Below are positions 1,944-32,463 of a stretch of 32,463 nucleotides of DNA, one piece after another. Under the pieces are notes generated by a model. That model was not told where the DNA came from. It searched no databases and saw nothing but the letters and a program-made list of their open reading frames with translations. The stretch spans positions 1 through 32,463 of the forward strand of contig DUPB01000248.1 of NCBI GenBank assembly GCA_012838585.1, given 5' to 3'. Position 1 is the stretch's first letter; every line of letters starts with the position of its first letter. This DNA is from Bacteroidales bacterium. Lineage in GTDB: Bacteria > Bacteroidota > Bacteroidia > Bacteroidales > Dysgonomonadaceae. Made by a program: the position numbers and the translations under genes.

Positions 1944-1973
1944 CCGTGAACCGTTACACTACTTGGTTCGCGG
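1944..1973. terminator. Second hairpin between convergent rny and GH57 genes
   Basis: CCGTGAACC (1944-1952) pairs with GGTTCGCGG (1965-1973), 9 bp with one mismatch. The plus strand continues with TTCTTATTT, and the minus-strand GH57 gene stops at 1977, directly beside it. It probably acts as a shared, bidirectional terminator between the two convergent transcription units. The T-run is poor in the minus direction. Confidence 0.5.
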
Positions 1974-1976
1974 TTC

Positions 1977-10463: not shown

Positions 10464-10476
10464 TTTATTGAGATTT

Positions 10477-11748: not shown

Positions 11749-11785
11749 ATTTGTTTTTGTAAATGTTGCTTAAATCATGAAATAT

Positions 11786-13768: not shown

Positions 13769-13800
13769 GTTCTTGTTTTTAATGGTTTGAACAATGCTAA

Positions 13801-16539
13801 TCAAAATGAAAGTTGAACCCCAATGTTAAATGATCTGTTAAGTGGATAATTTAATCCGTTGCTACCAACTTCGGGGTCCCAGAGCTTGAAAGCACTTAAG
13901 ACGAATGCATTTTCACAAGTGAAATATATCCTCGCGTTGAAAAGTGCGGAGATAGCACTTGTGTTATACCCGGCTTCAATGGTTTTCAAGCGTAAGAAGC
14001 TCCCATCACGTAACCACCAAGAAGAGGCTTGAGAATTATTGTTCACAATAGAGGTGGATAAGCGTGGGAAAAAAGCATGCACATCTGGATTCGATTCGCT
14101 CCAATAGCTATCTGCTATAAAAGACAGGGAGTTTTGTCTATTTACGAACGGGGTTATTGCACTAGAGCTGATAAAGAATGACGTTCGGGCATTCCCCTGA
14201 AAGAAGAAGGAAAAATCGAACTTTTTGTATCCGATCGATGCACCAAAGCCATATTGAACTTCGGGGACCCCCGGGAACCCCATGGGTACAATATCATAGC
14301 TGTTGACTACCCCATCGTTATTAACGTCTTTGTACTTTATATCTCCTGCCATGTATGGACCAAAGTCCTGTTTGGGTGAGTTGTCGATTTCTGCCTGATC
14401 CACAAATAACCGTTCTGCAATAAGCCCGTATAGTTGATTTATAGGATTCCCAACACGTTGCAGGTATGCATAAGGATAGTTCAATTCATCCAGTTTGGTA
14501 TATTTGTTTTTCGCATAGGTTACATTCAAACGTCCCGTTAGCCAGAAGTCTTCTGTGAAAGAGTGCTGAAAGTCTATAGAACCGTCTATTCCGTGAGATT
14601 TTGCTTGGCCCGCATTTCCAGAAGGTAGTGTGCTCCAACCTGCTGTTGACGGAATGTTTGATCTAACGCTATAAATCCTACTTCTAGTATCCTTGAAAAA
14701 GTCAACGTTCAGTTTTAGGATTTCATTTTTAAAGAAACCGAACTCGAAACCAAGGTTGATTTTATCAGAGATTTCCCAGGTCATGTCTGGGTTCCCTATG
14801 CGATTTATATTATATCCACCATAGGAGGTTTGGAAAGAGTTTCCCCAAGTGTATCCACCACCACTGCCAGTTGAAATATCTGAGAGAAACCAAAAGCGGG
14901 CAGCCCTTCCAGCAATGGCATCGTTCCCAACTTTACCATAAGTCAACTTAAGTTTTAACAGGCTGAAAACATCCTTTATGGATCCCCAAAAAGGCTCATT
15001 TGATATCAACCATCCCCCACCGATAGAGGGGAAAAATCCAAACCTATGTTTACCCGAAAATTTTTCAGAACCATTATAACCGTAAACGAATTCAAAAAAA
15101 TACCTGCTGTCGTAATCATAGGTGAAACGACCTGAATTACCAAGATTTCGCTCAGGCAATGTCTCGAAGATATTGCTGCTATTGCCTCCAGTAAGTAAGC
15201 TTTGCTCGGCTGTAAATACCGTCATTAGCCCTAAATGATGCTTATTGAATTCCCGTTCCCAATTAAAACGTCCTTCAAAGTAGTAATGATTTGTAGCATT
15301 TCGGTATGGCTCTACCCCTCCAAGATAAGCTTGTCCAGAGGTGGAGTTCAAAATAAAAAGGGTGTATTCATCTGATATAGGACTGTAAGTGTCAATCGTA
15401 TAGAAATAAGGGAAGTACCTTCTTTTTGCCGTGTAAGAACTCCAGGTTGTTGCAGAAATTTTTCCCTGGAACTTCAAGTTTTCAGTGATAAAACCCAAGT
15501 CTTGTGACAAGGTAGCCGTAGCAGTTATGGTATTGTCATCTCTGCTTTGATAGCCCATTACCATCTCTGCGTAGGGATTAACCATAAGTGCACCAGAATT
15601 GTAGGCGTTACCAAATAAGGTGTGCTTAGTGAAAAGATTGGCCTCATCCGGTTCAAAGAAAGGAGGGAAATCGACAGGGTTACTTCTCATTATCGTATTG
15701 TAAATTTCCGTTGCAGAGCGGTAAGGACCATTGTAAGTTTCAAATCGTCCTTGTATCCTTGTATCAAGTGTTGTGAGCTTGGTGAGCTTAAATACAACGT
15801 TGCTTCGGATGTTAAATCTATTGATACTGATGTTGTTATTGAAGTTGTTCCTATTGTCTACTTTTAATAAACCTGTTTCATGATCATATCCAACCGACAC
15901 GTAGTATTTGGCAATATTGCCTCCTCCCGACAAATTGACATTTGTTTTCGTATTGGTCGTTGATGATTTGAATAGCTCGTCAAGCCATTGCACGTTAGGA
16001 TAAACCATTGGGTTCATGCCATCTTCAGTAGCTTGAATTCTCTGCTCACTATAATATGGACTTTCATTGGGCGTTCGTGTTAGAAGTGCCTCATTATACA
16101 TCCTCATATAAGTAACACCATCGACAAACTCATTCATTCTGGTAGGTGTAGTAATTCTGGTGTCTATACGAACATTCATCCGTACAGGACCTTCTCTTCC
16201 CTCTTTGGTTGTGACTAGGATTATCCCATTGGCCCCCCTTGGCCCATACATCGCGGTTGCCGTAGCATCCTTTAGGATAGAAAACGCCTCAATATCATCG
16301 CTTGGAAGACGAGCGAGATCGTTAGCAGAGGCTTCAAATCCATCAATTAAGATTAATGGATCCGTTTTATAACCGAATGTAGTTACACCACGAACAAAAA
16401 ATTGCGCGTTGTCATTTCCAGGTTCTCCTGTGGTTTGATAAGAGATAACCCCGGGGATTTTACCGGCGAATGCAGTTGTTAGGTTACTGCTGGGAATTTT
16501 CAGGTCTTTGGTATTAACTGTTTGAATTGAAGAGATCAT
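13801..16539 (-). CDS. SusC-type TonB-dependent transporter, main part (split by frameshift)
   Basis: 912 residues holding the plug and the whole outer-membrane beta-barrel of a SusC transporter, lacking its N-terminus. Plug motifs are NLTTAFAGKIPGVISYQTTGEPG, DPLILIDGFEASANDLARLPSDDIEAFSILKDATATAMYGPRGANG. The protein ends in FNIGVQLSF with the terminal Phe of outer-membrane barrels. The ATG at 16539 overlaps the TGA of the upstream fragment by four bases, but the sequence continues that fragment directly, so the two are almost certainly one gene of about 1,030 residues interrupted at a run of six A. With one extra A (or a -1 shift) the frames join without a gap. If the break is real and not corrected, the protein could not be exported because the signal peptide lies in the other fragment. 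Confidence 0.92.
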   Translation of the reverse strand: MISSIQTVNTKDLKIPSSNLTTAFAGKIPGVISYQTTGEPGNDNAQFFVRGVTTFGYKTDPLILIDGFEASANDLARLPSDDIEAFSILKDATATAMYGPRGANGIILVTTKEGREGPVRMNVRIDTRITTPTRMNEFVDGVTYMRMYNEALLTRTPNESPYYSEQRIQATEDGMNPMVYPNVQWLDELFKSSTTNTKTNVNLSGGGNIAKYYVSVGYDHETGLLKVDNRNNFNNNISINRFNIRSNVVFKLTKLTTLDTRIQGRFETYNGPYRSATEIYNTIMRSNPVDFPPFFEPDEANLFTKHTLFGNAYNSGALMVNPYAEMVMGYQSRDDNTITATATLSQDLGFITENLKFQGKISATTWSSYTAKRRYFPYFYTIDTYSPISDEYTLFILNSTSGQAYLGGVEPYRNATNHYYFEGRFNWEREFNKHHLGLMTVFTAEQSLLTGGNSSNIFETLPERNLGNSGRFTYDYDSRYFFEFVYGYNGSEKFSGKHRFGFFPSIGGGWLISNEPFWGSIKDVFSLLKLKLTYGKVGNDAIAGRAARFWFLSDISTGSGGGYTWGNSFQTSYGGYNINRIGNPDMTWEISDKINLGFEFGFFKNEILKLNVDFFKDTRSRIYSVRSNIPSTAGWSTLPSGNAGQAKSHGIDGSIDFQHSFTEDFWLTGRLNVTYAKNKYTKLDELNYPYAYLQRVGNPINQLYGLIAERLFVDQAEIDNSPKQDFGPYMAGDIKYKDVNNDGVVNSYDIVPMGFPGVPEVQYGFGASIGYKKFDFSFFFQGNARTSFFISSSAITPFVNRQNSLSFIADSYWSESNPDVHAFFPRLSTSIVNNNSQASSWWLRDGSFLRLKTIEAGYNTSAISALFNARIYFTCENAFVLSAFKLWDPEVGSNGLNYPLNRSFNIGVQLSF

Positions 16540-16892
16540 GCTGCTTTTTTCTGTTGTCCAAATGCCACTACTACGACTTCATCCAGCTCCTTTTCCTCTT
16601 CCTTCATTCTGACCGTGATAATTCGTGCATCGCCGATCTTCACCTCTTCAGTTTTATAACCAATGAATGAGAAAGTGAGCACACATGTATCGCTGGGTAC
16701 GGTAATTGTAAACTCTCCATTACTATCAGTTATTGTTCCAGTAGTACTCCCTCGAAGCATCACCGTAACTCCGGGAAGTGTCTCATCAAAATTGTCAAAA
16801 ACCTTGCCTGTTATTCGAAGGCTTTGTGCAAACAAAGCCGATGCAAACAATAACAGGGACATTGTAATAAAGTATTTCTTATAACTACTCAT
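16536..16892 (-). CDS. SusC-type transporter, N-terminal fragment (signal, CarboxypepD_reg, TonB box)
   Basis: 118 residues ending at TGA 16538-16536. MSSYKKYFITMSLLLFASALFAQ is a signal peptide. Then comes a carboxypeptidase-regulatory-like beta domain (LRITGKVFDNFDETLPGVTV, GTITDSNGEFTI, LTFSFIGYKT) and the TonB-box region LDEVVVVAFGQQKK. Intact SusC proteins continue from here into the plug; here the frame runs AAA AAA GCA GCA TGA and stops. The main part of the transporter follows in the -1 frame. The start at 16892 places the signal peptide at the N-terminus; an ATG at 16913 is possible. It begins 22 bases after the ADP-ribosylglycohydrolase gene. Assembly error, true pseudogene, or recoding are all possible. 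Confidence 0.85.
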   Translation of the reverse strand: MSSYKKYFITMSLLLFASALFAQSLRITGKVFDNFDETLPGVTVMLRGSTTGTITDSNGEFTITVPSDTCVLTFSFIGYKTEEVKIGDARIITVRMKEEEKELDEVVVVAFGQQKKAA

Positions 16893-16914
16893 GACCTTGA
16901 TTATTAATGACATC

Positions 16915-18609
16915 CTATTCAATTCGTATCTCTTTCCAATAGCCGGCCTCCCAGGCCCATCCATTTGCTTTATTTTCAAGATCGATCTTCACGTTTTTAC
17001 TCCCGGAGAAAGGTGTCAAATCGAAGACTACCTCAAGCCATCCATCACTGTTTACCGTCTCCTTTCCTATGGTTATGGTTTTTTGAATCGAACCGTTTAC
17101 CCGTATAATTAACTCCCAGTCACCCTTATCGTGATGGCTAACGAGCGTCTTAAGCAGGGTTTTTTTATTTTTGGGGACATCAATCTCCGTACTAAGAATG
17201 CAGGGAGTTTCTCTAGTCAACGGGTGTGTCATGATTACATCTTTTTTACCGCGGTATTCCTCCCTGTATCCCGGATTCATATCTGTTCCACAATCTGATA
17301 TTATCCAACCCGGGAACAGGTCATTTATGGCCTTTTGGATGTCAAGAAAGTCTTTAAATTTGATTTTCGCCATTTCTTCTTCAGAGAAAAGGCTATTCGC
17401 TATTGGTTCTGGATCCCAGCTAAAGACAAGGGGGCTTGGCGTTGGTTTCTTTACTGGAATAATAAAGTACTCTTCTCCATCCGCCTCTGTTTTAATTTGA
17501 CCGCCCTCTCTCAATACATACTCCCGCGCCAGCTTTTCACAAACATCAAGCAATTTGGGGAAATTGTAACTCGTGTGAGCAAAGTGCGTTTCTTGGTCAA
17601 GGTTTTCTTTAAACCGATCCGGGAGTTTTGAGGTTCCAAGGGTGGTAAACAAGACACCTGCTGCATTTGATGGATTGCAATCGGAGTCTTGGCCGCAGCG
17701 TGTTGAGATAATAATCGTGTTGTCAAGGTCTTTTTCCCCATAGAGCAAACCTATAAGAATATATGCTCCGTTGATTTTCACGTCTATACCTCCATTGGAA
17801 CACTTCTGGTATTCGGGGTTTTCCCGGTATTTTTGCTGGCATAATGACCATGTGGTTTCCCAATTGTCTGGATCTGTTTTGTACCATGAAACAACATCTC
17901 GCACCATCTCAGCGTATTGACATTCTTCTGGAATACACCTGAGGCCGGCATCAATAACCTTTACTATATCTGTTTCAAAAAATGCTTCAGCATACATGCC
18001 ACCAATGAACTGTCCCGCGTACATTCCATCGCTGTAATTCATTAATCGTCCAAATTTCTCGCCCAACTCGATCGCTACATTGGGCATTCCTGGTGCAATC
18101 AAGCCTGAATAATCGGCTTCAATTTGATAATCAATGTCATTAGGACAATTCGTGAAAGCTGGATGGCTACAATCAGGCGGGGCAATTCCTGCACGCAAAT
18201 TCCTTCGCCCAGCGGCGTTGGCACACCACAAGGGGTATTCGCTATTGGCGAAATCTATTCCTGCTTGTCGGATGGATACATCTAAGCCATGCTCTTCAAG
18301 TGTGCGTAAAAATGTCATTTCAACATATAGGTCATCTTGATTAAAGGCTGAGTTAATCAATTCAGGCTTCCAAATAGGCATGTCATTTTCCGGAATAATT
18401 TTATCCTGCCATCTAAACTCAGTAGGAGCACCCCAGGCAACCCCTACTATTTGGCCTAGCCATCCTGCTTGCAATTTATCGCGATATTCACTTACTGATA
18501 ACTTTCGATATTCAATATCTGAATCATCCTGACTGGTTTTACTGTTTAAACACCCTGTTAGACTTATTAGAATAGTAACAATAATTAGGTGTGATGCTTT
18601 GTTTAACAT
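16915..18609 (-). CDS. Lipoprotein ADP-ribosylglycohydrolase-family protein
   Basis: 564 residues. Lipobox SLTGC (Cys20) puts it on the envelope, unlike the usual cytoplasmic DraG/ARH enzymes. The family pattern is present: GWLGQIVGVAWGAPTE (residues 49-64), the QDDLYVEM metal/substrate motif with Asp92-Asp93, and GQDSDCNPSNAAG with Asp308, Asp310 and Asn312. These enzymes hydrolyse ADP-ribosyl or related N-ribosyl bonds with Mg2+. The last 130 residues look like a separate beta-sandwich (LSTEIDVPKNKKTLLKTLVSHH, WELIIRVNGS, VVFDLTPFSG), perhaps for binding. A homologous gene type (rusGH) occurs in Bacteroides ribose-utilisation loci. It is the fourth gene of the operon, 43 bases after the permease gene and directly before susC. 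The true substrate is not shown by the sequence. Confidence 0.88.
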   Translation of the reverse strand: MLNKASHLIIVTILISLTGCLNSKTSQDDSDIEYRKLSVSEYRDKLQAGWLGQIVGVAWGAPTEFRWQDKIIPENDMPIWKPELINSAFNQDDLYVEMTFLRTLEEHGLDVSIRQAGIDFANSEYPLWCANAAGRRNLRAGIAPPDCSHPAFTNCPNDIDYQIEADYSGLIAPGMPNVAIELGEKFGRLMNYSDGMYAGQFIGGMYAEAFFETDIVKVIDAGLRCIPEECQYAEMVRDVVSWYKTDPDNWETTWSLCQQKYRENPEYQKCSNGGIDVKINGAYILIGLLYGEKDLDNTIIISTRCGQDSDCNPSNAAGVLFTTLGTSKLPDRFKENLDQETHFAHTSYNFPKLLDVCEKLAREYVLREGGQIKTEADGEEYFIIPVKKPTPSPLVFSWDPEPIANSLFSEEEMAKIKFKDFLDIQKAINDLFPGWIISDCGTDMNPGYREEYRGKKDVIMTHPLTRETPCILSTEIDVPKNKKTLLKTLVSHHDKGDWELIIRVNGSIQKTITIGKETVNSDGWLEVVFDLTPFSGSKNVKIDLENKANGWAWEAGYWKEIRIE

Positions 18610-21701: not shown

Positions 21702-21761
21702 GGAGATACGTTATATAAAAATCAGTACATCTAGAACGAACATTATTTTTACCAACCAATG

Positions 21762-21769
21762 CAAATATA
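21762..21769 (-). promoter_or_regulatory. -7 element candidate for the ribose-type operon
   Basis: Read on the minus strand the sequence is TATATTTG, an exact match to TAnnTTTG, about 60 bases before the first start codon at 21701. No TTTG is found at the expected -33 spacing, so activator help or a weak promoter is possible. It lies within the segment that is repeated near 31071. Confidence 0.45.
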
Positions 21770-21864
21770 AAACATATAAATTAAGGAATAATCGTTTGAG
21801 CAAAATAATTCCATTAAAAATAGTTAATTAGCGCTTTTCTGGTAAAAAATCAATTTAAATCTGG

Positions 21865-21872
21865 TAGTTTTG
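21865..21872 (+). promoter_or_regulatory. -7 element candidate for lacI
   Basis: TAGTTTTG is an exact TAnnTTTG match ending 14 bases before the lacI ATG at 21887. The transcript would have a very short leader of about ten bases. In the repeat copy near 31174 the same position reads TCGTTTTG, so the box is damaged there. Confidence 0.45.
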
Positions 21873-21886
21873 TTTAAAAAAAGAGT

Positions 21887-22909
21887 ATGCAGCATAAACC
21901 GAATATCGTTGATATAGCCGAAATAACCGGTTTTTCCATTACGACGGTCTCTCGTGTATTAAATGGGAAAGGGGAGAAGTACCGAATTAGCAAGGCCACG
22001 CGGGAGAAAATCAAGTCGGTAGCAGAGGAGTTGGAATACGTTCCCAATGAGTTTGCAAGAAATCTTCGTATAGGGAAAAGTAAAACGATTGCGCTGATTG
22101 TGCCTTCCTTGAAAAATCCCTTTTTCGCTGAGATCGCGAGCGTTGTAAACACCGAAGTGCGAAAGTACGGGTACATCACGCTTATAGGGGATAGTGACGA
22201 CCAGGTTGAAAACGAAAAAACTGAGTTGTCGCATTTATCATCGAGGAGTTTAGACGGGATGATCGTGGTTCCTTGCGGGGAAAAGTGGGATCATCTGGTT
22301 AAGGTTCATGAGAGTGGCTTACCGTTAATATGCATCGACCGCTATTTTGAAGATACCAGTCTATCGTATGTCTCTTCTGACAATTACGAGGGGGCCTATT
22401 CGGCCACCAAATACCTGATTGATCAAGGGCACACGGATATCGCGTGCATTCAGGGGGTGAGGCATTCGATGCCTAACATTCAGCGGGTGAAAGGGTTCAC
22501 GGATGCGATGAAAGATGCAGGAATGGATACCTATACGGTAACGGGGGATGCTTTCAGCGAACAGAATGGCTATTTGGAAACGAAACTGCTGTTGAGTCGG
22601 GGGAAGCGCCCCTCCGCGATTTTCGCTTTTAGCAACATGATTGCCATGGGCTGCTTGAAAGCCCTTAAGGAAGAAAATGTCCGTATCCCGGAAGCCATTT
22701 CACTGATCACTTTCGATGACAACCCCTACATGAATTATATTGACCCCCCGCTTACCTGTATATCGCAACCGGTAGAAGATATATGCAAAATAGCGGTGAA
22801 AATCCTTTTTTCCCATATCCTCGATGACGATAAAACGCCAAAACATGTGCTGTTAAAGTGTACGTTAAAGGTAAAGGAATCCGTGAAAAATGTAAGTTAC
22901 TCCTCTTGA
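21887..22909 (+). CDS. LacI-family transcriptional regulator
   Basis: 340 residues. The N-terminal helix-turn-helix is at residues 7-26 (IVDIAEITGFSITTVSRVLN), followed by ISKATREKI and the hinge helix YVPNEFARNLR near residues 50-60. The rest is the two-lobed periplasmic-binding-protein-like effector domain (IALIVPSLKNPFFAEI, ICIDRYF, DGMIVVPCG, ISLITFDDNPYMNYIDPPLT). It is divergent from the ribose-type operon with 185 bases between starts, so that operon is its most likely target and a ribosyl compound or ribose its likely effector. Bacteroides rus systems use a different, dedicated regulator, so a LacI protein here is a local variation. The flanking DNA is duplicated near 31071-31260. Confidence 0.94.
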   Translation: MQHKPNIVDIAEITGFSITTVSRVLNGKGEKYRISKATREKIKSVAEELEYVPNEFARNLRIGKSKTIALIVPSLKNPFFAEIASVVNTEVRKYGYITLIGDSDDQVENEKTELSHLSSRSLDGMIVVPCGEKWDHLVKVHESGLPLICIDRYFEDTSLSYVSSDNYEGAYSATKYLIDQGHTDIACIQGVRHSMPNIQRVKGFTDAMKDAGMDTYTVTGDAFSEQNGYLETKLLLSRGKRPSAIFAFSNMIAMGCLKALKEENVRIPEAISLITFDDNPYMNYIDPPLTCISQPVEDICKIAVKILFSHILDDDKTPKHVLLKCTLKVKESVKNVSYSS

Positions 22910-22962: not shown

Positions 22963-23002
22963 ATCGGGTACCGTCAATAGCCATACTCTCGTGATTTCCT
23001 AT
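22963..23002 (+). repeat. Direct-repeat unit, copy A tail (just downstream of lacI)
   Basis: ATCGGGTA (22963-22970) recurs at 31204-31211, and bases 22974-23002 recur at 31232-31260 with 27 of 29 identical, including CCATACTCTCGTGAT without change. Copy B carries 17 extra bases bounded by GGGTA direct repeats. This tail is non-coding and lies between the convergent lacI and DUF4434 genes. No good hairpin with a T-run is seen in it. Confidence 0.8.
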
Positions 23003-23039: not shown

Positions 23040-24371
23040 TCAATTCATTTGTGCTTTTATTCTTGCGGACTCTTTTCCGATAGAATTATAGGTCGAAACC
23101 TCATACGTATGTAGTTTCCCCGTAAGAGCGTTATCATCTGTGAATTTGCTTTCAAACTTGTCGTCCTTTGCAAACTGAATGTTACCTATCTTCTCCCCAT
23201 CCTTGTAGATATAAAAACCTACAACATTAGAGATGTCCCCTGGTGCTTTCCACGTTAAATTGAGTATGTTTGATGTGCGTTTACCAGAAACTTCCGATAC
23301 AGGTGGAGGTTGTGGTGTATCAGGAAGCTTGCCGTTCTTTACATAGTACAAATAAGCTTCATGAAATTTTTTGTTTACCACATTGGGGCTGTAATAATGA
23401 CTATAGGCAAATGTGATTACTTTTTCTACGTAAGGAGCAGTCAAGTTCAATTGTTCTACAAATCTATTCAAAGGTGCAGATGCCCAATATTTTTGTTCAA
23501 ACGTTTCCGCATCGGACCAGAACTGTAATCCTGTTTTTTTTTTCACTGCCTTGCCTAATGCTTCAAACCATTCAGGTATCATCCGCAACTCAAGTCCCCC
23601 GGCCCCCACGCAATCCTGTGGGGCAAAAATATCACCTGCCTGAAAGTGTGTTCTTTCAAATATATATTCCCATGATTCCGCGTACTTATGGGCATCTCCA
23701 ATACGATAGTTCATAAAGGGGCATAACATAAAAGGCATGTTGGGGGTAACCTTATGTAAATGTGTTAAGTTAATATTCAACGCGTTTACAAGAGCATCTT
23801 TATATTTTTGTTGCAACAATTCAGGTATATTGGCTACCTCCCACACCCAGTACCATCCATACATACTATCTCCATATCGGTCTTTGTATTTGTTAATCAG
23901 TTCATCGGCAACCGTGTTACCAATATTCATCTGATCCAACAACCAAGCTTCATCGCCATCACCAGACCACCATCTTTCATGAAAATTCAGGCCCAGAAAA
24001 ACCTTGAAGTTGGCTTTTTGTGCATTTTTTAGGCATTGTTCCACTAAATCGGAATATCTATCATTCTGATTGCCGGTAAATGGAGTTTGGTATAGACTTA
24101 TCATTTGGCCATCCATACCCGTATGTAATACAGGGCCGAACACGATATACTTCATGCCTACCTCTTTCAATGCTTTTAGCTCTTTTTGCCACTGTTCGTC
24201 ATTCCAATTATAAACTAGGTGGGCTTGAATAAATGTTCCCTCGGGTATAAGGTGGTTTTTGTCTGAAACAATCTGGTCAAGCCCACCATGCTCTTTTTGA
24301 CACCCTTGCAGTGAAAAGATGACCGCGGAAAGAATGAGCGTGAAGAGAATGGAATAAATTTTCTTTTTCAT
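23040..24371 (-). CDS. DUF4434-type glycosidase-like lipoprotein with C-terminal Fn3 domain
   Basis: 443 residues. Lipobox SLQGC (Cys24). Residues about 40-345 resemble DUF4434, a TIM-barrel family related to glycoside hydrolases: IPEGTFIQAHLVYNWNDEQWQKEL at the start, KVFLGLNFHERWW, YGWYWVWEVAN with Glu178, FAPQDCVGAGG, and LQFWSDAETFEQ with Glu289. Glu178 at the end of a strand (WEVAN) and Glu289 are plausible acid/base and nucleophile, but this is inferred from position. The last 95 residues form a fibronectin type III-like domain (LNLTWKAPGDISNVVGFYIYKDGEKIG). It is the last gene of the second PUL, separated from it by a strong hairpin. It is the only recognisable candidate enzyme of that PUL. 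The start at 24371 is set by the signal peptide. Confidence 0.82.
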   Translation of the reverse strand: MKKKIYSILFTLILSAVIFSLQGCQKEHGGLDQIVSDKNHLIPEGTFIQAHLVYNWNDEQWQKELKALKEVGMKYIVFGPVLHTGMDGQMISLYQTPFTGNQNDRYSDLVEQCLKNAQKANFKVFLGLNFHERWWSGDGDEAWLLDQMNIGNTVADELINKYKDRYGDSMYGWYWVWEVANIPELLQQKYKDALVNALNINLTHLHKVTPNMPFMLCPFMNYRIGDAHKYAESWEYIFERTHFQAGDIFAPQDCVGAGGLELRMIPEWFEALGKAVKKKTGLQFWSDAETFEQKYWASAPLNRFVEQLNLTAPYVEKVITFAYSHYYSPNVVNKKFHEAYLYYVKNGKLPDTPQPPPVSEVSGKRTSNILNLTWKAPGDISNVVGFYIYKDGEKIGNIQFAKDDKFESKFTDDNALTGKLHTYEVSTYNSIGKESARIKAQMN

Positions 24372-24404
24372 TATAGAATTACAGGCTGTTAAGATAGAAG
24401 AAAA

Positions 24405-24461
24405 CATAAAGCAGTAACTGACCTGTTAGTCATGCCGGTTTCGTACAATTACTGCTTTATG
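24405..24461 (-). terminator. Strong hairpin between the glycan-binding and DUF4434 genes
   Basis: A 13-bp perfect inverted repeat (24405-24417 with 24449-24461; stem CATAAAGCAGTAA) and a 31-nt loop. In the minus direction it is followed by TTTTCTTCTATCTT, so it can work as a terminator or attenuator. It lies 20 bases after the stop of the glycan-binding protein gene and before the DUF4434 start, which would lower DUF4434 expression relative to susCD. Confidence 0.6.
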
Positions 24462-24481
24462 AAATAAAAATAACTTCTTTT

Positions 24482-25612
24482 TCAGCTTCCTTTTTTGTAT
24501 ACGCGAATATTATCGAATGCAAAATTACGTGCAATATTGGGGTCAATTTCAAGTCGCATATTGAAAGACCTATAATAGTAGTTTTCTGGATAGGTAGATG
24601 AGCGATTTACAACAAAAGGTAACGTGATTGTTTCCCATCTGTTGAAGTTTTGGAAAATAAAATCACTTGGGACCCACTCCATCGGGTTAGCATCCCAAAA
24701 CAGATAATTGCAAAACTTGATTTTACCATCAATAAATTGATTGGCTGTCCTGAACTCACACTTTATCACGTAGTCCTCGTAATTGTCGAGCATGTCATCT
24801 GTATATGGAACTCCTCCAATTTCAGTAATATACCACCAGCCTGCATAGGCTGATGTATCATCAATTCGCAGGAAATTTCCACTTAGGCGCTGTTTATCAT
24901 TGGGATCCATGACCACGTTGGCAACATTGGAAGGCATGTGTTCATCAAAATCCATGATCATGCCCTCTTTGTCGTAATAGCGGCCGGGACAGAATGCTTC
25001 AACGTTGTGTTTCGTTCCTATAACTTTGATCTTGATATTCTGATCAACATTCAATGGCACTTTTGCCGTTAAATGATTATTCGAGGAGCTGATAACAGGG
25101 GACTCTATACCATTGAAGTCGACTACGGCATTGTCAGCGTTTATTTCATATAACTCAAAGAAGTCACCGTAAATCATTATTGTATCACCGGGTTTAGTAT
25201 ATTCGTTAAACATACGCTCAAGGTATAAAGCAGGTGGAAGTGCCTTAAACGGTATTGCCTGCACACCCAGGCTATTATGAACATATATCCTGTTCGTCTC
25301 GATCATAGCCAGTTTGACAGGTATTTTCATGAAAAGGATGTCATTTTCGGTATATACCTCCAACAAATCCACTTTCACGTCATTAATGAGCACTGAATCA
25401 ATATTCGCCAGATCCAATCCCGTTCCATGGATGGCAATGAAATCACCTAATGCTGCCTCCGTGATTGCCATGTTCAGATCGGCTACCGTGGTAACTTTAC
25501 TTAGTGTGATTGGTTTATAGTCTGTTACATCCTCTGAACATGCTAGCAGGGAGATTACAAGGAATATGATTCCTATCCTGTGGATATTATCCAAATTAAA
25601 AATATTTCTCAT
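24482..25612 (-). CDS. IPT/TIG surface glycan-binding lipoprotein (SGBP-B type)
   Basis: 376 residues with lipobox SLLAC (Cys25). Two immunoglobulin-like IPT/TIG repeats follow (AALGDFIAIHGTGLDLANIDSVLINDVKV and TKPGDTIMIYGDFFELYEINADNAVVDFNG). The C-terminal 170 residues form a beta-sandwich of the surface glycan-binding type, rich in Trp and Tyr (AGWWYITEIGGVPY, FWDANPMEWVPSDF, FAFDNIRVYKK). Such proteins follow susCD in many PULs and hold the polysaccharide at the surface. The gene starts 57 bases after susD. Ligand specificity cannot be read by eye. Confidence 0.85.
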   Translation of the reverse strand: MRNIFNLDNIHRIGIIFLVISLLACSEDVTDYKPITLSKVTTVADLNMAITEAALGDFIAIHGTGLDLANIDSVLINDVKVDLLEVYTENDILFMKIPVKLAMIETNRIYVHNSLGVQAIPFKALPPALYLERMFNEYTKPGDTIMIYGDFFELYEINADNAVVDFNGIESPVISSSNNHLTAKVPLNVDQNIKIKVIGTKHNVEAFCPGRYYDKEGMIMDFDEHMPSNVANVVMDPNDKQRLSGNFLRIDDTSAYAGWWYITEIGGVPYTDDMLDNYEDYVIKCEFRTANQFIDGKIKFCNYLFWDANPMEWVPSDFIFQNFNRWETITLPFVVNRSSTYPENYYYRSFNMRLEIDPNIARNFAFDNIRVYKKGS

Positions 25613-25669
25613 ACGATTATTTTTCTTTATATTTCATCTTATTATTCTTATTCATTAATAAAAAAAACA

Positions 25670-27382
25670 TTACCATCCGGGATTATTGGTTTCAATGAAA
25701 GGATTGGCGTTAACTTCGTTCAATGGTAACGGCAATAGCAAGTGTTTAGACTCGCGCCTTTTTACAATACCATTTTCGTCAACCGTGCCAATAGCATTCA
25801 TTACCTGTAGATAAATCCCCCAGCGTATCAAGTCTGATCGACGGATACCTTCGCCGGCAAACTCTTTAGCTCTCTCCTCCAAGATATAGGATCGGAAGGT
25901 TTCCTTGTTAAAAGGAGTGTTGCTATTTCTAACTGAAACCAGCGTGCTATTATTACGTTCGTTCAACATATCTACCACTTGCAATGCCTGACTAGAAGGA
26001 CCGTTATTTACCTCGTTATCGGCTTCTGCAAATATCAACAATGTTTCGGCGTAGCGCATATAAGGCCAGTTAAAGTCGGCCCTGTTACCATCCAGCGGAA
26101 ATTCAGATACCGCGGAGAATTTCATCAGTTTAGAACCATACATGTGGGCTCCTTCTGCAACCACATCGGTTACATCGTAGCCTTTTGTCCCCTGTCGCAC
26201 GTATACACTATCCCTTTCCGGATAAAAGTAATACAATAATTTACCTGTATTTTCATTATAATGATAAGGAATACGATGTAGTATGCCCCATGTAATGCGT
26301 TCATCCTCCCAGTCATCGAACGTCTGTAGCCAATGATCTCTTTGTACATAGTAACCATTCCTCCACTCACCGTTGTATACAGGGCTAGAATATCCCAAAT
26401 AATCAACAGGCACAAAGTTATTGTAAAGAGAACCTTTGCCATTTATTGTCTGCAGGCAAAAAATAAATTCAGGACCATTTTTATACGCCGCGCTCCACAA
26501 TTCTTCTTGACTGGCTGCAAGACTAAACTCCCCTTCTTGAATCACTTCCAATGCTTTGTCTCTTGCTAGTCGATAATACTCTTGTGAATCAAAACCTTCG
26601 TAACCAGCCACCTGACTTTTTTCGTGGGCGATTGGTGTTGGCATCAGCCGTGAAGTCGTACCATCCGGATTGGTGACCGAGCCCGGACCGCCTTTCACGA
26701 CTATTTTCCCGCTTTTCATTGAAGCAGAGCCAATAGTCGCGTACACCTTTGCCAATAAGGCTTTGGCTGAGCCACGACACACGTGTCCCTTTTCATATGC
26801 TGGATCATTGCGAGGGGTTAACAGGAGTTCCGCTTCTTCTAAGGTCTCTATGATATGGTCATAGACTTCGCTTACTGCAGCCCGTGGTTGTTCCGGTACG
26901 TTGCCTTCAGATATCGATGACTTAAATAACGGGATAGGGCCAAAATGCTGTACGAGTTGAAATTGTGCCCAAGCTTTCAGGAATAGCAGTTCACCAAGCG
27001 CATTATTCTTGGTTTTTTCCGGGATGTTGGTAATCATTTTCACTAACGAATAGTGATAATTGGCTCTGTGAACAGATTGATTGTAGTATTGATAAAAATT
27101 GTCATTAGACGCCGAGTTGTAAAAGTTACCGGCACCTATGGAACCGAATGCCCATCCTGGCCCGGTTTGGTAATCACAGTCAAAGTTCACCAACTCGTGA
27201 TAATTGCCCCATTCAAAGGGGAACAGTAAAGTTAAATAAGCTCCCGAAACCAGCTGGTCATAATTGCCAGATGCAGCAACATCTTCACCTGAAACGAATG
27301 TGAAAGTCTCTTCATCCAGGTTACAAGCAGTCATCAACATCAGCGTTGCCAATATGTAGATCAATATATTCATTTTATTCAT
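25670..27382 (-). CDS. SusD/RagB-family nutrient-binding lipoprotein (second PUL)
   Basis: 570 residues, a typical SusD length. Lipobox LMTAC (Cys20). Family features include YDQLVSGAYLTLLFPFEW near the N-terminus, LGELLFLKAWAQFQLVQHFGPIPL, and the C-terminal signature FNWPYMRYAETLLIFAEADNEVN, ERAKEFAGEGIRRSDLIRWGIYL, then ETNNPGW at the end. It binds substrate above the SusC barrel in the outer membrane. The start could be 27382 or the Met codon three positions later. It follows susC by 12 bases and is clearly a different lineage from the SusD of the ribose-type operon. Confidence 0.94.
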   Translation of the reverse strand: MNKMNILIYILATLMLMTACNLDEETFTFVSGEDVAASGNYDQLVSGAYLTLLFPFEWGNYHELVNFDCDYQTGPGWAFGSIGAGNFYNSASNDNFYQYYNQSVHRANYHYSLVKMITNIPEKTKNNALGELLFLKAWAQFQLVQHFGPIPLFKSSISEGNVPEQPRAAVSEVYDHIIETLEEAELLLTPRNDPAYEKGHVCRGSAKALLAKVYATIGSASMKSGKIVVKGGPGSVTNPDGTTSRLMPTPIAHEKSQVAGYEGFDSQEYYRLARDKALEVIQEGEFSLAASQEELWSAAYKNGPEFIFCLQTINGKGSLYNNFVPVDYLGYSSPVYNGEWRNGYYVQRDHWLQTFDDWEDERITWGILHRIPYHYNENTGKLLYYFYPERDSVYVRQGTKGYDVTDVVAEGAHMYGSKLMKFSAVSEFPLDGNRADFNWPYMRYAETLLIFAEADNEVNNGPSSQALQVVDMLNERNNSTLVSVRNSNTPFNKETFRSYILEERAKEFAGEGIRRSDLIRWGIYLQVMNAIGTVDENGIVKRRESKHLLLPLPLNEVNANPFIETNNPGW

Positions 27383-27394
27383 AGTCGTATGCTT

Positions 27395-30300
27395 TTAGAA
27401 TGATAGTTGAAGCCCCAGGTTAAACGTGCGAGCACTGGGGTAAGAAGATAAGTCCACGCCTCTACGTGAGGCATCGCTACCAAAACTATTCACGTCAGGG
27501 TCATACCAATCATATTTTGTAATGGTGAACAGGTTTGATACACTAGCGGTTAAGATTAACGACTCCACGTGGATGATTGGTCTTTTCCAATTGTAGCTCA
27601 AGCTGATGTTTTTACATCTAAGGTAAGAACCATCTTTCACGTAACGATCGGATGCCTTCATGGATCGTGTATAGGTATTGTCTGGACGTGGCCATCGTGC
27701 TATATTCCTATTCTCCGGGGTCCAACGGGTATCCCATACGCTTTTCGGCATGTTGGTGGATCCTACTAAATCGAATGGTAGTAAATTGACATTCAAAATA
27801 TCATTACCTTGCGTTCCCTGCAGGAAAAAGCTAAAAGTCCACTCTTTATAGGCAAAGGTATTGGTCATACCATAGAAGAAGTCCGGATTGGTGTCACCAA
27901 TAATGGCCTTATCGCGGTCATCAATAACCGGGTCATCGTCCATATTCTTATATTTAATCTGTCCCACCATGCTCTTAACCTTCGAAGCACTCTCTGTTGC
28001 ATAATATGGATCTGCCCTTACTTCAGCCTCGTTGTCATAAAACCCATCTTCAACATATCCATACAAGGTGCCAATCGGGTACCCGTTTCTCCTTAAAAAC
28101 ATACTTTCCATTCCCCATACCACATCGGAGAACTGATCAGCGTTCAATCCGCTTATTTCGTTTCTGTTAAAAGAGATATTCGCATCAATCGTCCACACGA
28201 AGTTCCTGCCTTTAACCGGCATAAAATTGCCGCTCAGCTCTAGACCTTTATTCGTCACATTTCCATAATTCGTTGCAATCTGATTAAACCCGGAACTCAT
28301 TGGGATTAGTTTGTACTGTAACAGATCAGTTGTTTTCTTATAATAGACATCAAATACAAAATTGACCCTACTATTGAAGAATGAGACATCCAATCCTACA
28401 TCATACTGACTCGTTGTTTCCCACTTCAAATCGGGTGCGGCGGGTCCACCCCAACGATCTTCAGCCATCCCGCTGGTGAATTTTCCATCAAAGGAATAGT
28501 TCGAAGCGACAAACTTAGAACGGGTGGCATAAGCACTTACACCTTGATTTCCTGTCTGTCCGGCGCTGAGTCTTAGTTTCAGGTTGTCAAAGAAATTTAA
28601 TGACTTGATGATGGGTTCATCGGATAAACGCCAAGCAATAGCACCTGAATAAAAGTTGTTCCATCGATTTAGGGCTAATCGACTTGATCCATCACGACGT
28701 ATTGAAAATGTCATCAAGTATTTATCCATGAGGTTATAATTGACTCGAAATAGATAAGACATCAATTGAGATTTGCCACGGTAGCTGCTAATGTTTTTAT
28801 CACCAACCGCCGCGTCAATATCATTATCCTCCGTGTCATCGATCGGGAAATTCTTAGCGTTCATCGATTTCCCTTTCCATGTAACTTTTTCATAGGTTAC
28901 ACCAGCCACAGCATTAATTGCATGCCTATTGAACTTCTTGTCAAAAGAGAGTGTTGACTCCTCGGTTAAACTTTCGTAAGTACCATCCGATTTAACCGCG
29001 TACCCATTCGTGGGAGACTGTCCAGCACCTGTGTATCGGTTATAATACTGGCTCCTTTCATTAAAACTATACCCGTAACCTAAATTCTGACGAAATGTCA
29101 AAAAGTCCGTAAATTTGACTTCGGCAAATCCAGACGTGAAAACGTTGATTGTTGAAAGCACATTTTTTTCAGTTTGAACGGTCAAATATGGATTAGCCAG
29201 TCCTGTTGCAAAATCCTCCGAGAAACCAGAGTCGGCCTCTGGGTCGAAAACGGGGCGGGTAGGGTTAAAAGATACGGCAGAAGCAATCACCCCGTAATTT
29301 TCACTATTCGTGCGGGCAAAGCGGTTGTCTGATTTGGTAAAACTGAGGTTAGCTCCAATTTGAAGGAATTTATTAATATGGCGGGTATTATTGGCGCGTG
29401 CGTTATAGCGCTTGTAATAAGAATTCACGATAACTCCCTGTTGATCCAAATATCCGCCAGAGTACATGTAAGACCCCCTTTTGTCTCCCCCTGAAACGGT
29501 GAGATTGTAATCACTGCTTAATGCAGTATGGAATATTTCATCTTGCCAGTTAGTGCCGTAAAATAATGTGCCATCTCCAGTTCGATCGTATCCATTTCTG
29601 AAATCGTCAGGGCTTGGCAAATATCTTTTATCAATGACCTCCGATTGACCTGTTACTGGATTTGGTTGCTTGACTTCATGCCAACGCCCAGGAATAGGAA
29701 AAGGCAAATTATTAGGACTTACCACCTCCCTACCATCGTACAAGTATCCATTTATTACCAGTTCATTGCGGTACTCGGCGTATTCAGCCGCATCCAGCAC
29801 ATCAATTTTTTTTACCACGTTAGAACTGCTGAAATTTGAACTGAATTGTACACGGGCTTTACCTTCGTAACCAGATTTAGTGGTTATAATGATTACCCCG
29901 TTGGCACCGCGGGAACCATAGATAGCGGTGGCCGATGCATCTTTCAAAACCTCAATAGAATGGATGTCCTGAGGGTTGATCGTGCTTAAGGGGTTGTTGG
30001 TCTGCTTGGTCCCGTAATCCGTGGCAGGAGCCTCACCTATTGAAAAAGGGATACCATCGACAATATACAAGGGTTCTGTACTAGTGGTAAATGAATTTGC
30101 ACCACGTATTTGGATGTTAATTCCCGCGCCAGGTGCTCCATCTGCTTGTGAAACGCTAATACCCGCCAATTTCCCCTGTAATCCTTGATTCAGACTTACC
30201 GGGTTTGTTTTCATCAAATCATCCCCTTTTAACGAAGAGACAGAGCCTGTGAGGTCTCTTTTCTTTACCGTACCATATCCAACGACGACAACTTCTTCCA

Positions 30301-30631
30301 ACAGTTCACTGCTCTCCTGTAAAGAGACTTCCAAGTAAGTCCTTCCATTGAGGGGAACGGTCTCAGTTTGAAAGCCCACATATGAAAACTCTATGGTTAC
30401 ATTTTTATCCGAGGCAGTCAATTGAAATTCCCCTTCCTTATTGGTTATTGTTCCTTGTCGTGTATCAGACATAATAACATTTACGCCAATCAAAGCATTA
30501 CCATTAACATCGGTTACCTTTCCTGTTACCCTGATTTGCGTGAATCCCAAAAAGGGAATGAACAAAAAGGCGAAAAATGATAACAATTTAATGAATGGGT
30601 TAATGCCTAAGTTTTCTGGATTCTTTCTCAT
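27395..30631 (-). CDS. SusC/RagA-family TonB-dependent transporter (second PUL)
   Basis: 1078 residues and intact. A signal peptide ends near FLGFTQ (residue 32). It is followed by a carboxypeptidase-regulatory-like domain (RVTGKVTDVNGNALIGVNVIM, GEFQLTA), the TonB box region EEVVVVGYGTVKKRDLTGSVSSL, and the plug with GLQGKLAGISVSQADGAPGAG, YIVDGIPF, IEVLKDASATAIYGSRGANGVIIITTKSG. The barrel ends in RTFNLGLQLSF. It imports glycan fragments across the outer membrane with energy from TonB. It is the first gene of the second PUL, with an unusually long upstream region of about 770 bases to the next gene, which includes the repeated lacI control region. Confidence 0.96.
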   Translation of the reverse strand: MRKNPENLGINPFIKLLSFFAFLFIPFLGFTQIRVTGKVTDVNGNALIGVNVIMSDTRQGTITNKEGEFQLTASDKNVTIEFSYVGFQTETVPLNGRTYLEVSLQESSELLEEVVVVGYGTVKKRDLTGSVSSLKGDDLMKTNPVSLNQGLQGKLAGISVSQADGAPGAGINIQIRGANSFTTSTEPLYIVDGIPFSIGEAPATDYGTKQTNNPLSTINPQDIHSIEVLKDASATAIYGSRGANGVIIITTKSGYEGKARVQFSSNFSSSNVVKKIDVLDAAEYAEYRNELVINGYLYDGREVVSPNNLPFPIPGRWHEVKQPNPVTGQSEVIDKRYLPSPDDFRNGYDRTGDGTLFYGTNWQDEIFHTALSSDYNLTVSGGDKRGSYMYSGGYLDQQGVIVNSYYKRYNARANNTRHINKFLQIGANLSFTKSDNRFARTNSENYGVIASAVSFNPTRPVFDPEADSGFSEDFATGLANPYLTVQTEKNVLSTINVFTSGFAEVKFTDFLTFRQNLGYGYSFNERSQYYNRYTGAGQSPTNGYAVKSDGTYESLTEESTLSFDKKFNRHAINAVAGVTYEKVTWKGKSMNAKNFPIDDTEDNDIDAAVGDKNISSYRGKSQLMSYLFRVNYNLMDKYLMTFSIRRDGSSRLALNRWNNFYSGAIAWRLSDEPIIKSLNFFDNLKLRLSAGQTGNQGVSAYATRSKFVASNYSFDGKFTSGMAEDRWGGPAAPDLKWETTSQYDVGLDVSFFNSRVNFVFDVYYKKTTDLLQYKLIPMSSGFNQIATNYGNVTNKGLELSGNFMPVKGRNFVWTIDANISFNRNEISGLNADQFSDVVWGMESMFLRRNGYPIGTLYGYVEDGFYDNEAEVRADPYYATESASKVKSMVGQIKYKNMDDDPVIDDRDKAIIGDTNPDFFYGMTNTFAYKEWTFSFFLQGTQGNDILNVNLLPFDLVGSTNMPKSVWDTRWTPENRNIARWPRPDNTYTRSMKASDRYVKDGSYLRCKNISLSYNWKRPIIHVESLILTASVSNLFTITKYDWYDPDVNSFGSDASRRGVDLSSYPSARTFNLGLQLSF

Positions 30632-31070
30632 GTTATTGATACATTTTTAAATATTGTTTAACACAAAATTCACGTTATTATTTCGTGATTTCATTAAAGT
30701 AAATTAACGACTGTTTGATTTCGGGTGGGGTGTTTCCCTCATTTGCTTCATGGATAAACACGGTTGTACCCGCTTGCTGTTTCAGAAAATCCGGTTAATT
30801 CAAAAAGTCGGTACTCCTTTTACATTCAACACATCTTTTCCCTGCGTGCCTTATGCGGCATTTTTTTTAATCCATCATAAGCGATACTTTTTTGTGATTT
30901 TGTTTTTATTTATGAAGGTGCTCTCTTGTTCTTTTTTATAACATGATCATGTCTCTTTTGCTCATTCACCGTTATGACTGTATCTTGGTTTGAAGAAAAT
31001 GCTTTGTGCTTATTAAGGAATCCAATGATTGAAGATATTTGGATTCTATCTGTATGTCTTGCTAACTGAT
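30632..31070. other. Long leader or intergenic DNA upstream of the second PUL
   Basis: About 440 bases without a convincing gene. The sequence is AT-rich. TCACG (30670-30674) and CGTGA (30684-30688) form a small dyad 40 bases before susC. GAATTTTG on the minus strand (30671-30664) is one base from the -7 consensus and could be the susC promoter. GAATCCA/TGGATTC (31018-31024, 31040-31046) is a 7-bp inverted repeat. Short open frames here look like chance. If transcription instead starts in the repeat at 31071, the leader would be over 400 nt. Confidence 0.5.
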
Positions 31071-31260
31071 GCGAATATAAAACATAAAAATTAAAAAATA
31101 ATCGTTTGAACAAGGGGGATTGGTTAAATAAAGTTAATCGCTGCTTTTTGCCAACAAAACGAATTATGTCTGGTCGTTTTGTTAAAAAATGCAGGCACTA
31201 TAAATCGGGTACTTTTGAGGTTTGGGTATCATCAATGGCCATACTCTCGTGATATCCTAT
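31071..31260 (+). repeat. Direct-repeat copy B: lacI control region and tail without the lacI gene
   Basis: The head (31071-31194) resembles 21761-21892 and ends in ATGCAG (31189-31194), the first two codons of lacI. Only nine bases later the tail begins (ATCGGGTA 31204-31211, then 31232-31260), which resembles DNA found after the lacI stop codon. About 1.06 kb present in copy A is therefore missing. Copies A and B have the same orientation and flank the whole second PUL. The -7 boxes are each altered by one base (TATATTCG on minus, TCGTTTTG on plus). Confidence 0.8.
31153..31183. promoter_or_regulatory. 10-bp inverted repeat, operator candidate
   Basis: AACAAAACGA (31153-31162) and TCGTTTTGTT (31174-31183) are perfect inverted repeats separated by 11 bases. 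The right arm is conserved upstream of lacI (21865-21874, TAGTTTTGTT); the left arm is only partly conserved there. A dimeric regulator could bind, but the arm is also the promoter -7 region, so this may be coincidence. Confidence 0.35.
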
Positions 31261-31275
31261 CTTGGTAACGGGTTG

Positions 31276-31287
31276 TAAAACGTTTTA
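31276..31287. promoter_or_regulatory. 12-bp palindrome TAAAACGTTTTA, LacI-type operator candidate
   Basis: A perfect palindrome with a central CG, the usual form of LacI/GalR-family operators (AAACG/CGTTT half-sites). It lies 128 bases before the start of the TonB-dependent receptor and 16 bases after repeat copy B. Binding by the LacI protein at 21887 is a guess. No identical palindrome was found in copy A. Confidence 0.4.
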
Positions 31288-31403: not shown

Positions 31404-32463
31404 ATGAAGAAGATTTTACTGCTATTACTCATTGTACTTCCATTGTCGACAAAATCCCTTTTCGCTTTCAACGATCCGGTGTCAGATCTTGTATCTGGTG
31501 CACTTACCGGTCGTGTAGTCGACAAAATGGGTTACGTGCTACCCGGGGCCACTATTTTAATTGAGGGTACCCATATCGGCATCGTTTCTGATGTGAACGG
31601 TTTTTTCAGGATTACCGGACTTAAGGATGGTGCTTATACCATACGGGTATCTTACGTTGGATTCACGCCGGAAGATATACGGTTGACCATTAAGGATGGT
31701 GAAACCAACGCGTTAAACAACATCGTGTTAAACGAGGGTTTATTGATGAATGAGGTTGTGGTTACCGGTATGAATTCGCAATACAAGGCGATGTCGCAAC
31801 AGAAAAATAGCATCAATATCGCTAATGTTATTTCGGCTGACCAGGTGTCGCGTTTTCCCGATTCCAACATTGGCGATGCACTGAAACGCATACCCGGTAT
31901 CAGCGTACAGTACGACCAGGGCGAGGCACGCTTCGGTCATGTTCGCGGTACCTCTCCCGATTTGAGCTCGGTAACCATTGACGGTACACGTGTCCCCTCG
32001 GCTGAGGCGGAGATGCGTTCGGTACAGCTCGACCTTATACCGGCTGATATGATTCAGACCATTGAGGTGAACAAGGTGGTCACCGCCAATATGGATGCGG
32101 ATGCTATAGGGGGCTCGGTAAATCTTATAACGAAAAGTCAACCCTCGGGGCGCCGTATTACCGCCATGGGAGGTAGCGGCTACAACCTGATTTCAGAGAA
32201 GCCCCTGTTGAACTTGGGGTTCAGCTACGGGAATCGGTTTTTTGAGGATAAACTGGGCATGGTGCTTGCCGCCTCTTACCAGTACAACCCCTTGGGATCG
32301 GATAATATAGAGTTTGAATGGGAAAAAGATGATAAGGGCAAAAGCTACGTTTCAGATTACCAGGTTCGGCAATACCTTGTTAGCAGGGAGCGACAGAGTT
32401 ATTCAGCCGCTTTTGATTATCAGTTTAATCCCGATCATAAGATCGTGCTTAGCGGGATGTACA
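31404..32463 (+). CDS. TonB-dependent receptor, N-terminal part (runs off the window)
   Basis: 353 complete codons, open to the window edge. A signal peptide (MKKILLLLLIVLPLSTKSLFA) is followed by a carboxypeptidase-regulatory-like domain (LTGRVVDKMGYVLPGATILIEG, GFFRITGLKDGAYTIRVSYVGF). The TonB-box-like MNEVVVTGM and the plug come next: VSRFPDSNIGDALKRIPGISVQYDQ, RFGHVRGTSPDLSSVTIDGTRVPS, DADAIGGSVNLITKSQ. The wording of the plug places it with the TIGR01782-like receptors rather than SusC, and no SusD gene is expected. Barrel strands begin after about residue 265. The start at 31404 is the first ATG before the signal peptide. Substrate unknown; phosphate-containing compounds are one idea given the phased repeats upstream. 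Confidence 0.93.
   Translation, partial: MKKILLLLLIVLPLSTKSLFAFNDPVSDLVSGALTGRVVDKMGYVLPGATILIEGTHIGIVSDVNGFFRITGLKDGAYTIRVSYVGFTPEDIRLTIKDGETNALNNIVLNEGLLMNEVVVTGMNSQYKAMSQQKNSINIANVISADQVSRFPDSNIGDALKRIPGISVQYDQGEARFGHVRGTSPDLSSVTIDGTRVPSAEAEMRSVQLDLIPADMIQTIEVNKVVTANMDADAIGGSVNLITKSQPSGRRITAMGGSGYNLISEKPLLNLGFSYGNRFFEDKLGMVLAASYQYNPLGSDNIEFEWEKDDKGKSYVSDYQVRQYLVSRERQSYSAAFDYQFNPDHKIVLSGMY

What the first reader, a model, noticed from the sequence alone, without database searches (positions are those of the whole stretch)
31071..31260. Ghost LacI locus: regulator control region and 3' flank duplicated, gene deleted
The DNA in front of lacI (21761-21892) and the DNA behind it (22963-23002) both recur here in the right order and orientation. 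The best blocks match 38 of 43, 14 of 15 and 27 of 29 bases. In the copy the head runs to ATGCAG and then, nine bases on, into the tail, so about 1.06 kb covering lacI from codon 3 past its stop is absent. CAG occurs at both deletion edges in copy A (ATGCAG and CACAGG), which fits a short-homology deletion. The simplest story is a second LacI-type regulator for the second PUL that was lost, leaving its control DNA.
Basis: partly seen in the sequence, partly recalled or inferred. Interest (0 to 1): 0.78.

Follow-up and report, generated by a model that had tools for sequence, protein, structure and literature searches.

The report
Relic of a lost lacI gene
A sugar or nucleoside gene cluster in this Bacteroidales genome keeps the control DNA and first codons of a repressor gene that was once there, while a second copy of that repressor survives 9 kb away; it is a well-preserved trace of ordinary duplication and gene loss.

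Summary
The repeats are real. The lacI leader (U, 21749-21886) recurs at 31059-31192 and a tail (T, 22966-23002) at 31224-31260, in order; 0 of 1000 shuffles reach either score. U is a lacI leader, not a dispersed element: close copies occur only in this genome and one congener, G030.

G030 has an intact lacI where the ghost lies, directly before the same TonB-receptor gene. Three relatives with this PUL gene order have lacI divergent from the PUL's first genes, an oxidoreductase and an isomerase. In the window an eroded isomerase end lies left of the ghost leader and the first lacI codons right of it. So the ghost is the PUL's ancestral lacI address; the surviving lacI sits at a rearranged one.

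Corrections: the ghost start codon is AGG at 31193, not the ATGCAG named, so the CAG microhomology deletion is not supported. The ghost keeps an operator-like site and is about as conserved as the working leaders, so it may still control the PUL; no call shows that. How the duplication arose is open. Ordinary, well-documented gene loss.

The parts
31059..31192 (+). U_B: relict lacI leader / divergent control region (ghost)
   Evidence: 75% to U_A, E 2.5e-15; 79% to the G030 lacI leader, E 1e-27; shares 17 derived columns with A and G030 against eight other lacI leaders
31097..31111 (+). LacI-type operator-like site retained in the ghost (AATAATCGTTTGAAC)
   Evidence: matrix score 12.7, instance B not used in the matrix; rank 4 in the window and, apart from copy A, the best-scoring site between genes
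31193..31207 (+). remnant of lacI codons 1-5, start codon ATG now AGG (possibly on to codon 11, 31225)
   Evidence: 11 of 15 identical to copy A; 18 of 33 over codons 1-11 in this register only
31224..31260 (+). T_B: copy of the DNA behind lacI
   Evidence: 33 of 37 to T_A; in 101 family genomes its 24-base core occurs only in these two copies, apart from two 3-mismatch hits in G015 and G021
31276..31287 (.). perfect palindrome TAAAACGTTTTA (possible LacI-type site) before the TonB gene, absent at this place in G030
   Evidence: G030 sequence
30684..30752 (-). relic of the C-terminal end of the TIM-barrel isomerase gene that precedes susC2 in relatives
   Evidence: tblastn 56% over 23 residues, E 4e-5 (811 bases searched) and 0.003 (whole window, best hit)
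30812..30841 (-). second piece of the same isomerase relic (GKDVLNVKGV vs GTGVLNVKGM)
   Evidence: 7 of 10 residues, right order and spacing; weak alone, E 0.84
21749..21886 (+). U_A: leader of the surviving lacI, divergent from the nucleoside hydrolase gene
21887..22909 (+). surviving lacI (RbsR/CytR-like LacI-family regulator)
   Evidence: PF00356, PF13377; best NCBIfam model is an RbsR, at 257 bits against a cut-off of 382
22966..23002 (+). T_A
23040..30631 (-). PUL2: DUF4434 (23040-24407), SGBP-B-like (24482-25612), SusD (25670-27382), SusC (27395-30631)
31404..32462 (+). 5' part of a TonB-dependent receptor gene (contig ends inside it)
   Evidence: 95% to G030 residues 1-353

Best explanation
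The ghost is the eroded original control region and first codons of a lacI gene that stood between PUL2 and the TonB-receptor gene. Shown: in G487 a LacI gene is read away from the PUL2 operon with a two-way leader (U) between them (inferred across contig ends in G466 and G468), and the window keeps U flanked by remains of both old neighbours, isomerase on the left and lacI codons on the right. Inferred: this lineage came to carry two lacI loci in tandem. One is of the G030 kind (hydrolase <- U_A -> lacI_A - T_A) and one of the ancestral kind (PUL2 <- U_B -> lacI_B - T_B - TonB). They arose by tandem duplication with complementary gene loss, or by additive recombination with a close relative's allele. 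With two repressors for one operator type, lacI_B was redundant and about 1.05 kb of it was deleted. Inferred, less sure: U_B still serves PUL2 as promoter and operator, so the single surviving LacI_A controls both the hydrolase-ribokinase-permease operon and PUL2.
For: Repeat significance. Intact lacI before the same TonB leader in G030, its stop codon followed at once by the sequence that begins at window 31289. PUL2-lacI adjacency with a divergent oxidoreductase in G487, and in G466 and G468 through an oxidoreductase gene split over two contig ends; G013 has a PUL2-type cluster, in another order, beside a divergent lacI. Isomerase relic left of U_B. lacI codon register right of U_B. U_B lies inside the G000/G030 clade: 17 derived columns shared by A, B and G030. 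An operator-like site and the GTTAAATAAAGTTA block are kept in U_B. At conserved columns of U, B-only changes are 6, against 5 for A and 3 for G030.
Against: The lacI-ward -7-like box of U_B is TCGTTTTG instead of TAGTTTTG, and no exact TAnnTTTG faces susC2 between 30632 and 31200 (TATATTCG, as in G030), so continued promoter activity is unproven. The isomerase relic is short and its DNA score (20) only just exceeds the best of 300 shuffles (19). No oxidoreductase remnant was found. T is absent from G030, so T's history needs an extra gain or loss. PUL2 has GC3 39-43 against 54-77 for the nine other window genes measured outside the two low-GC blocks, which points to import rather than simple vertical descent. 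Of 8 other genomes with a PUL2-type SGBP, four (G028, G410, G452, G464) show no lacI in the stretch fetched around PUL2.
Confidence: 0.82

Rival explanations
1. U_B and T_B were copied from locus A (or the U-lacI-T segment was inserted next to newly arrived PUL2) and never belonged to PUL2; the lacI between them was then lost. Copy A is the original.
For: A shares the hydrolase-U junction with G030; PUL2 is compositionally unlike its neighbours, and G030 has no match to its SusD or SGBP at the thresholds used.
Against: U_B is flanked by the isomerase relic and lacI codons, neighbours that U's counterpart has in other genera. U_B matches G030 as well as or better than A does (40/45 and 60/82 against 39/45 and 55/83).
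Confidence: 0.15
2. U_B is purely a neutral fossil with no present role; PUL2 uses another promoter in 30632-31058.
For: Changed lacI-ward -7-like box; no exact TAnnTTTG toward susC2; the divergence of U among A, B and G030 (75-79% identity) is about that of four-fold sites, 0.20-0.30.
Against: The half with the operator-like site is 40 of 45 identical to A and to G030, as high as A to G030 (39 of 45). No exact TAnnTTTG was found anywhere in 30632-31200 toward susC2, so no better alternative was seen either.
Confidence: 0.4
3. Chance similarity of AT-rich DNA or a dispersed repeat.
For: Short 29-47 base matches of U exist in 4 other genomes of 393 in the order (two candidates scored per genome).
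Against: 0 of 1000 shuffles for each block; same order and orientation; strong matches only in G000 and, beside lacI, in G030.
Confidence: 0.01

Closest known systems
LacI-family repressor genes with divergent, shared control regions (RbsR/CytR-like)
   Same: Window lacI carries PF00356 and PF13377, and its leader holds a CG-centred operator-like site found beside most lacI genes of relatives.
   Different: At the ghost the regulator gene itself is missing; only the leader and a few codons remain.
Gene relics after duplication (pseudogene remnants)
   Same: Deleted body, preserved flanks, intact paralogue nearby.
   Different: Here the preserved part is the control region of the neighbouring PUL, which may be why it persists (inferred).
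SusCD-type polysaccharide utilization loci of Bacteroidota
   Same: SusC, SusD and SGBP-B-like genes in order.
   Different: Linked in relatives to ADP-ribosylglycohydrolase, ribokinase-like and permease genes beside a LacI regulator; SusR, HTCS or ECF regulators were not searched for.

Membership tests
lacI gene relic | intact homologue at the same place in a relative | tested here: met
   G030 lacI directly before the same TonB gene
lacI gene relic | residual coding sequence in register | tested here: met
   codons 1-5, 11 of 15; codons 6-11 inconclusive, 7 of 18
lacI gene relic | no intact reading frame | tested here: met
   no ORF of 90 aa or more listed between susC2 and the TonB gene; start codon AGG
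LacI-controlled operator region | operator conserved across relatives | tested here: met
   AAACGTTT or AATCGTTT core in 10 of the 11 genus lacI leaders printed besides A and B (not G013) and in 4 of 7 leaders from other genera of the family (not G467, G475, G476, whose lacI is 59% identical)
LacI-controlled operator region | LacI protein binds it and regulates PUL2 | not testable with these tools
   needs DNA-binding and transcription experiments
Dispersed repeat / mobile element | many unrelated genomic copies | tested here: not met
   in the own genome the two copies and one 35-base match; elsewhere G030 and short weak hits

The most novel reading that the evidence does not exclude
U_B is an orphaned two-way control region kept by selection after its own regulator gene was lost. 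Two alleles of one regulon (one that lost its PUL, one that kept it) became fused in tandem, and a single LacI now runs both halves from the wrong end of the PUL, with a new LacI-type palindrome drawing the TonB-receptor gene into the same regulon.
Probability: 0.35. Interest if true: 0.45.

Novelty: new member of a known kind. Interest (0 to 1): 0.3.

Why it matters
It shows, at base level, how a PUL can lose its own regulator and perhaps stay under the control of a paralogue, and how a lost regulator can be recognised from its leader alone. It predicts a testable regulon: hydrolase operon, PUL2 and perhaps the TonB receptor under one LacI protein.

Tried and rejected
Dispersed repeat: rejected. 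Chance: rejected. CAG microhomology at ATGCAG: not supported, since lacI homology continues beyond it in another register. Relic of the oxidoreductase between U_B and the isomerase relic: none found (DNA score 12 against a shuffle mean of 12.6, reached by 236 of 300 shuffles). Other remains of lacI coding DNA between the ghost and the TonB gene: best blastn match 12 bases, E 0.15, discounted. Dating the duplication with U alone: informative columns split 2 (AB), 2 (AG), 3 (BG), so the order of duplication and G000/G030 split is open. A claim that lacI codons in B decay faster than U_B: B-only changes are 11 in the codon columns against 6 in U, but most lie in codons 6-11, whose homology is uncertain, so I rest nothing on it. 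T as a named element: no source found. Right of the window: the rest of the TonB gene was not found in the own assembly (only a 31% paralogue), nor a DAPDH gene at E up to 1e-60 (the tool says an empty answer shows nothing). Papers: only search listings with the starts of abstracts were seen; none was opened, and no statement rests on them.

Full report
OBSERVATION. U: 21759-21880 against 31069-31189, 75% over a gapped alignment, E 2.5e-15 in a search of the whole genome. T: 22966-23002 against 31224-31260, 33 of 37, E 6.4e-7. In dinucleotide-preserving shuffles 0 of 1000 reached the U score (93; best shuffle 34) and 0 of 1000 the T score (54; best 27). The 43-base core has one good partner in the window (38 of 43); the next best place has 26. 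The organism is a Bacteroidales bacterium by the record title of a contig that, by its length, belongs to the same-genus genome G025; no finer name was established.

WHAT U IS. In 39 genomes of the genus, matches to U_A at E up to 0.001 occur in 2: the window's own and G030. Among 61 relatives, 5 have any match to the 221-base ghost query at E up to 0.001; apart from the window's own copies and the main G030 place these are 29-35 base fragments. Among 393 genomes of the order, 5 match U_A at E up to 1e-4, the four foreign ones over 29-47 bases; that search scored only two candidates per genome. So U is not a dispersed repeat. More distant lacI leaders can be aligned with it. They share a CG-centred site (AAACGTTT; AATCGTTT in A, B and G030), a GTTAAATAA block (altered in A) and a TA..TTTG box before the lacI start. 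The core site is in 10 of the 11 genus leaders printed besides A and B (not G013) and in 4 of 7 from other genera (not G467, G475, G476). That TA..TTTG is a Bacteroidota -7 box is recalled, not tested.

THE EMPTY SEAT. In G030 the order is permease, ribokinase-like, nucleoside hydrolase <- U -> lacI (95% identical protein) -> TonB receptor -> metallophosphoesterase -> DAPDH-like gene. Its lacI stop codon is followed at once by the sequence that begins at window 31289, before the TonB gene. In the window the same TonB gene is preceded by the ghost, and 8 kb with PUL2 lies between the surviving lacI and the ghost. T is not in G030.

THE ANCESTRAL ADDRESS. A PUL2-type SGBP is found in 9 of 101 family genomes, own included. 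Three with the window's gene order (G466, G468, G487) carry susC2-susD2-SGBP-DUF4434-ADP-ribosylglycohydrolase, with ribokinase-like and permease genes behind. In G487 an isomerase (PF01261) and a Gfo/Idh oxidoreductase stand before susC2, and lacI is read away from them with the U-type leader between. In G466 and G468 the oxidoreductase gene is cut by contig ends: its start lies beside lacI on one contig, its end before susC2 on another, which gives the same order by inference. G466 has the isomerase intact; G468 has what I read by eye as an isomerase remnant, though tblastn did not list it at E 1e-5. G013 has a PUL2-type cluster in another gene order beside a divergent lacI, with oxidoreductase and isomerase at the far end. 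G028, G410, G452 and G464 show no lacI in the PUL2 stretch fetched. Of 18 relatives' lacI loci fetched, the next matched gene behind lacI is the DAPDH gene in 11 (1.4 kb away in G466); in G030 two genes stand between; 5 show no DAPDH in the stretch; one is cut by its contig end.

BOTH OLD NEIGHBOURS ARE STILL THERE AS REMAINS. Left of U_B, at 30684-30752 on the minus strand, 23 residues match the isomerase C-terminus at 56% (E 4e-5 in 811 bases; 0.003 and best hit in the whole window), and a second piece (E 0.84 alone) lies at 30812-30841 with fitting order and spacing. The DNA score is 20 against a best of 19 in 300 shuffles, so each statistic is modest; place, strand and order add weight. 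No oxidoreductase remnant was found. Right of U_B, of 15 offsets tried only 31193 matches lacI codons 1-11 well: 18 of 33, start codon AGG. Codons 1-5 are 11 of 15; codons 6-11 are uncertain. Because homology passes the ATGCAG at 31189, the proposed CAG microhomology deletion is not supported.

HISTORY. A, B and G030 share 17 derived columns against eight other lacI leaders (of 17 relatives' leaders in hand besides G030), so U_B belongs to this clade; within it the informative columns split 2, 2 and 3, unresolved. Four-fold-site divergence between G000 and G030 is 0.20-0.30 in six genes, about the U divergence, so the duplication is about as old as, or older than, that split. The hydrolase-U junction is shared by A and G030. 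PUL2's SusD groups with G466, G468 and G487 at 100/99 support, not with the two PUL2-type clusters of its own genus, G013 and G028. PUL2 has GC3 39-43, against 54-77 in the nine other window genes measured outside the low-GC blocks (and 54-68 in four G030 genes); five genes in 8784-18609 are also low, 33-40. I therefore see two loci fused in tandem: a G030-like one and a PUL2-bearing ancestral one from the same clade. Whether by tandem duplication with complementary losses or by additive recombination with a relative is open.

FUNCTION. U_B keeps the operator-like site (31097-31111) and, at conserved columns of U, has 6 private changes against 5 in A and 3 in G030. Its hydrolase-side half is 40 of 45 identical to A and to G030; A to G030 is 39 of 45. 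Its lacI-ward box is changed (TCGTTTTG), as one would expect if lacI expression no longer matters. The susC2-ward box is TATATTCG, the same as in G030, not the exact pattern; no exact TAnnTTTG faces susC2 in 30632-31200, and one (TACTTTTG, 31210) faces the TonB gene. I think it somewhat more likely than not that U_B still drives PUL2 under LacI_A, but no call shows it.

VERDICT. It is a clean case of regulator loss after duplication. I saw no published description of this locus in four search listings, which is not a thorough search.

Noticed in passing
window 31276-31287: Perfect 12-base palindrome TAAAACGTTTTA before the TonB gene, absent at this place in G030; the window scan counted 10 perfect palindromes of 12 or more bases.
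   Followed up: partly
window 8784-18609: A second low-GC3 block (33-40) with SusC, SusD and a 564-aa ADP-ribosylglycohydrolase, absent at this place in G030; the first 390 residues of its SusC ORF are 90% identical to a gene cut by a contig end in G007.
   Followed up: partly
L072 (G468) about 166-314: G468 seems to have its own eroded isomerase before susC2: signal-peptide start and C-terminal end with the middle missing (read by eye).
   Followed up: no
L074 (G472) 9439-10353: lacI of G472 has a TAA stop inside the matched frame.
   Followed up: no
L044 (G010) 1003-2044: Nucleoside hydrolase of G010 matches in two adjoining pieces, perhaps a frameshift.
   Followed up: no
window 1971-2045: Short 15-base tandem repeats at the end of the minus-strand ORF 1977-3356.
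   Followed up: no
window 32462: The contig ends inside the TonB gene; its remainder was not found elsewhere in the assembly.
   Followed up: partly
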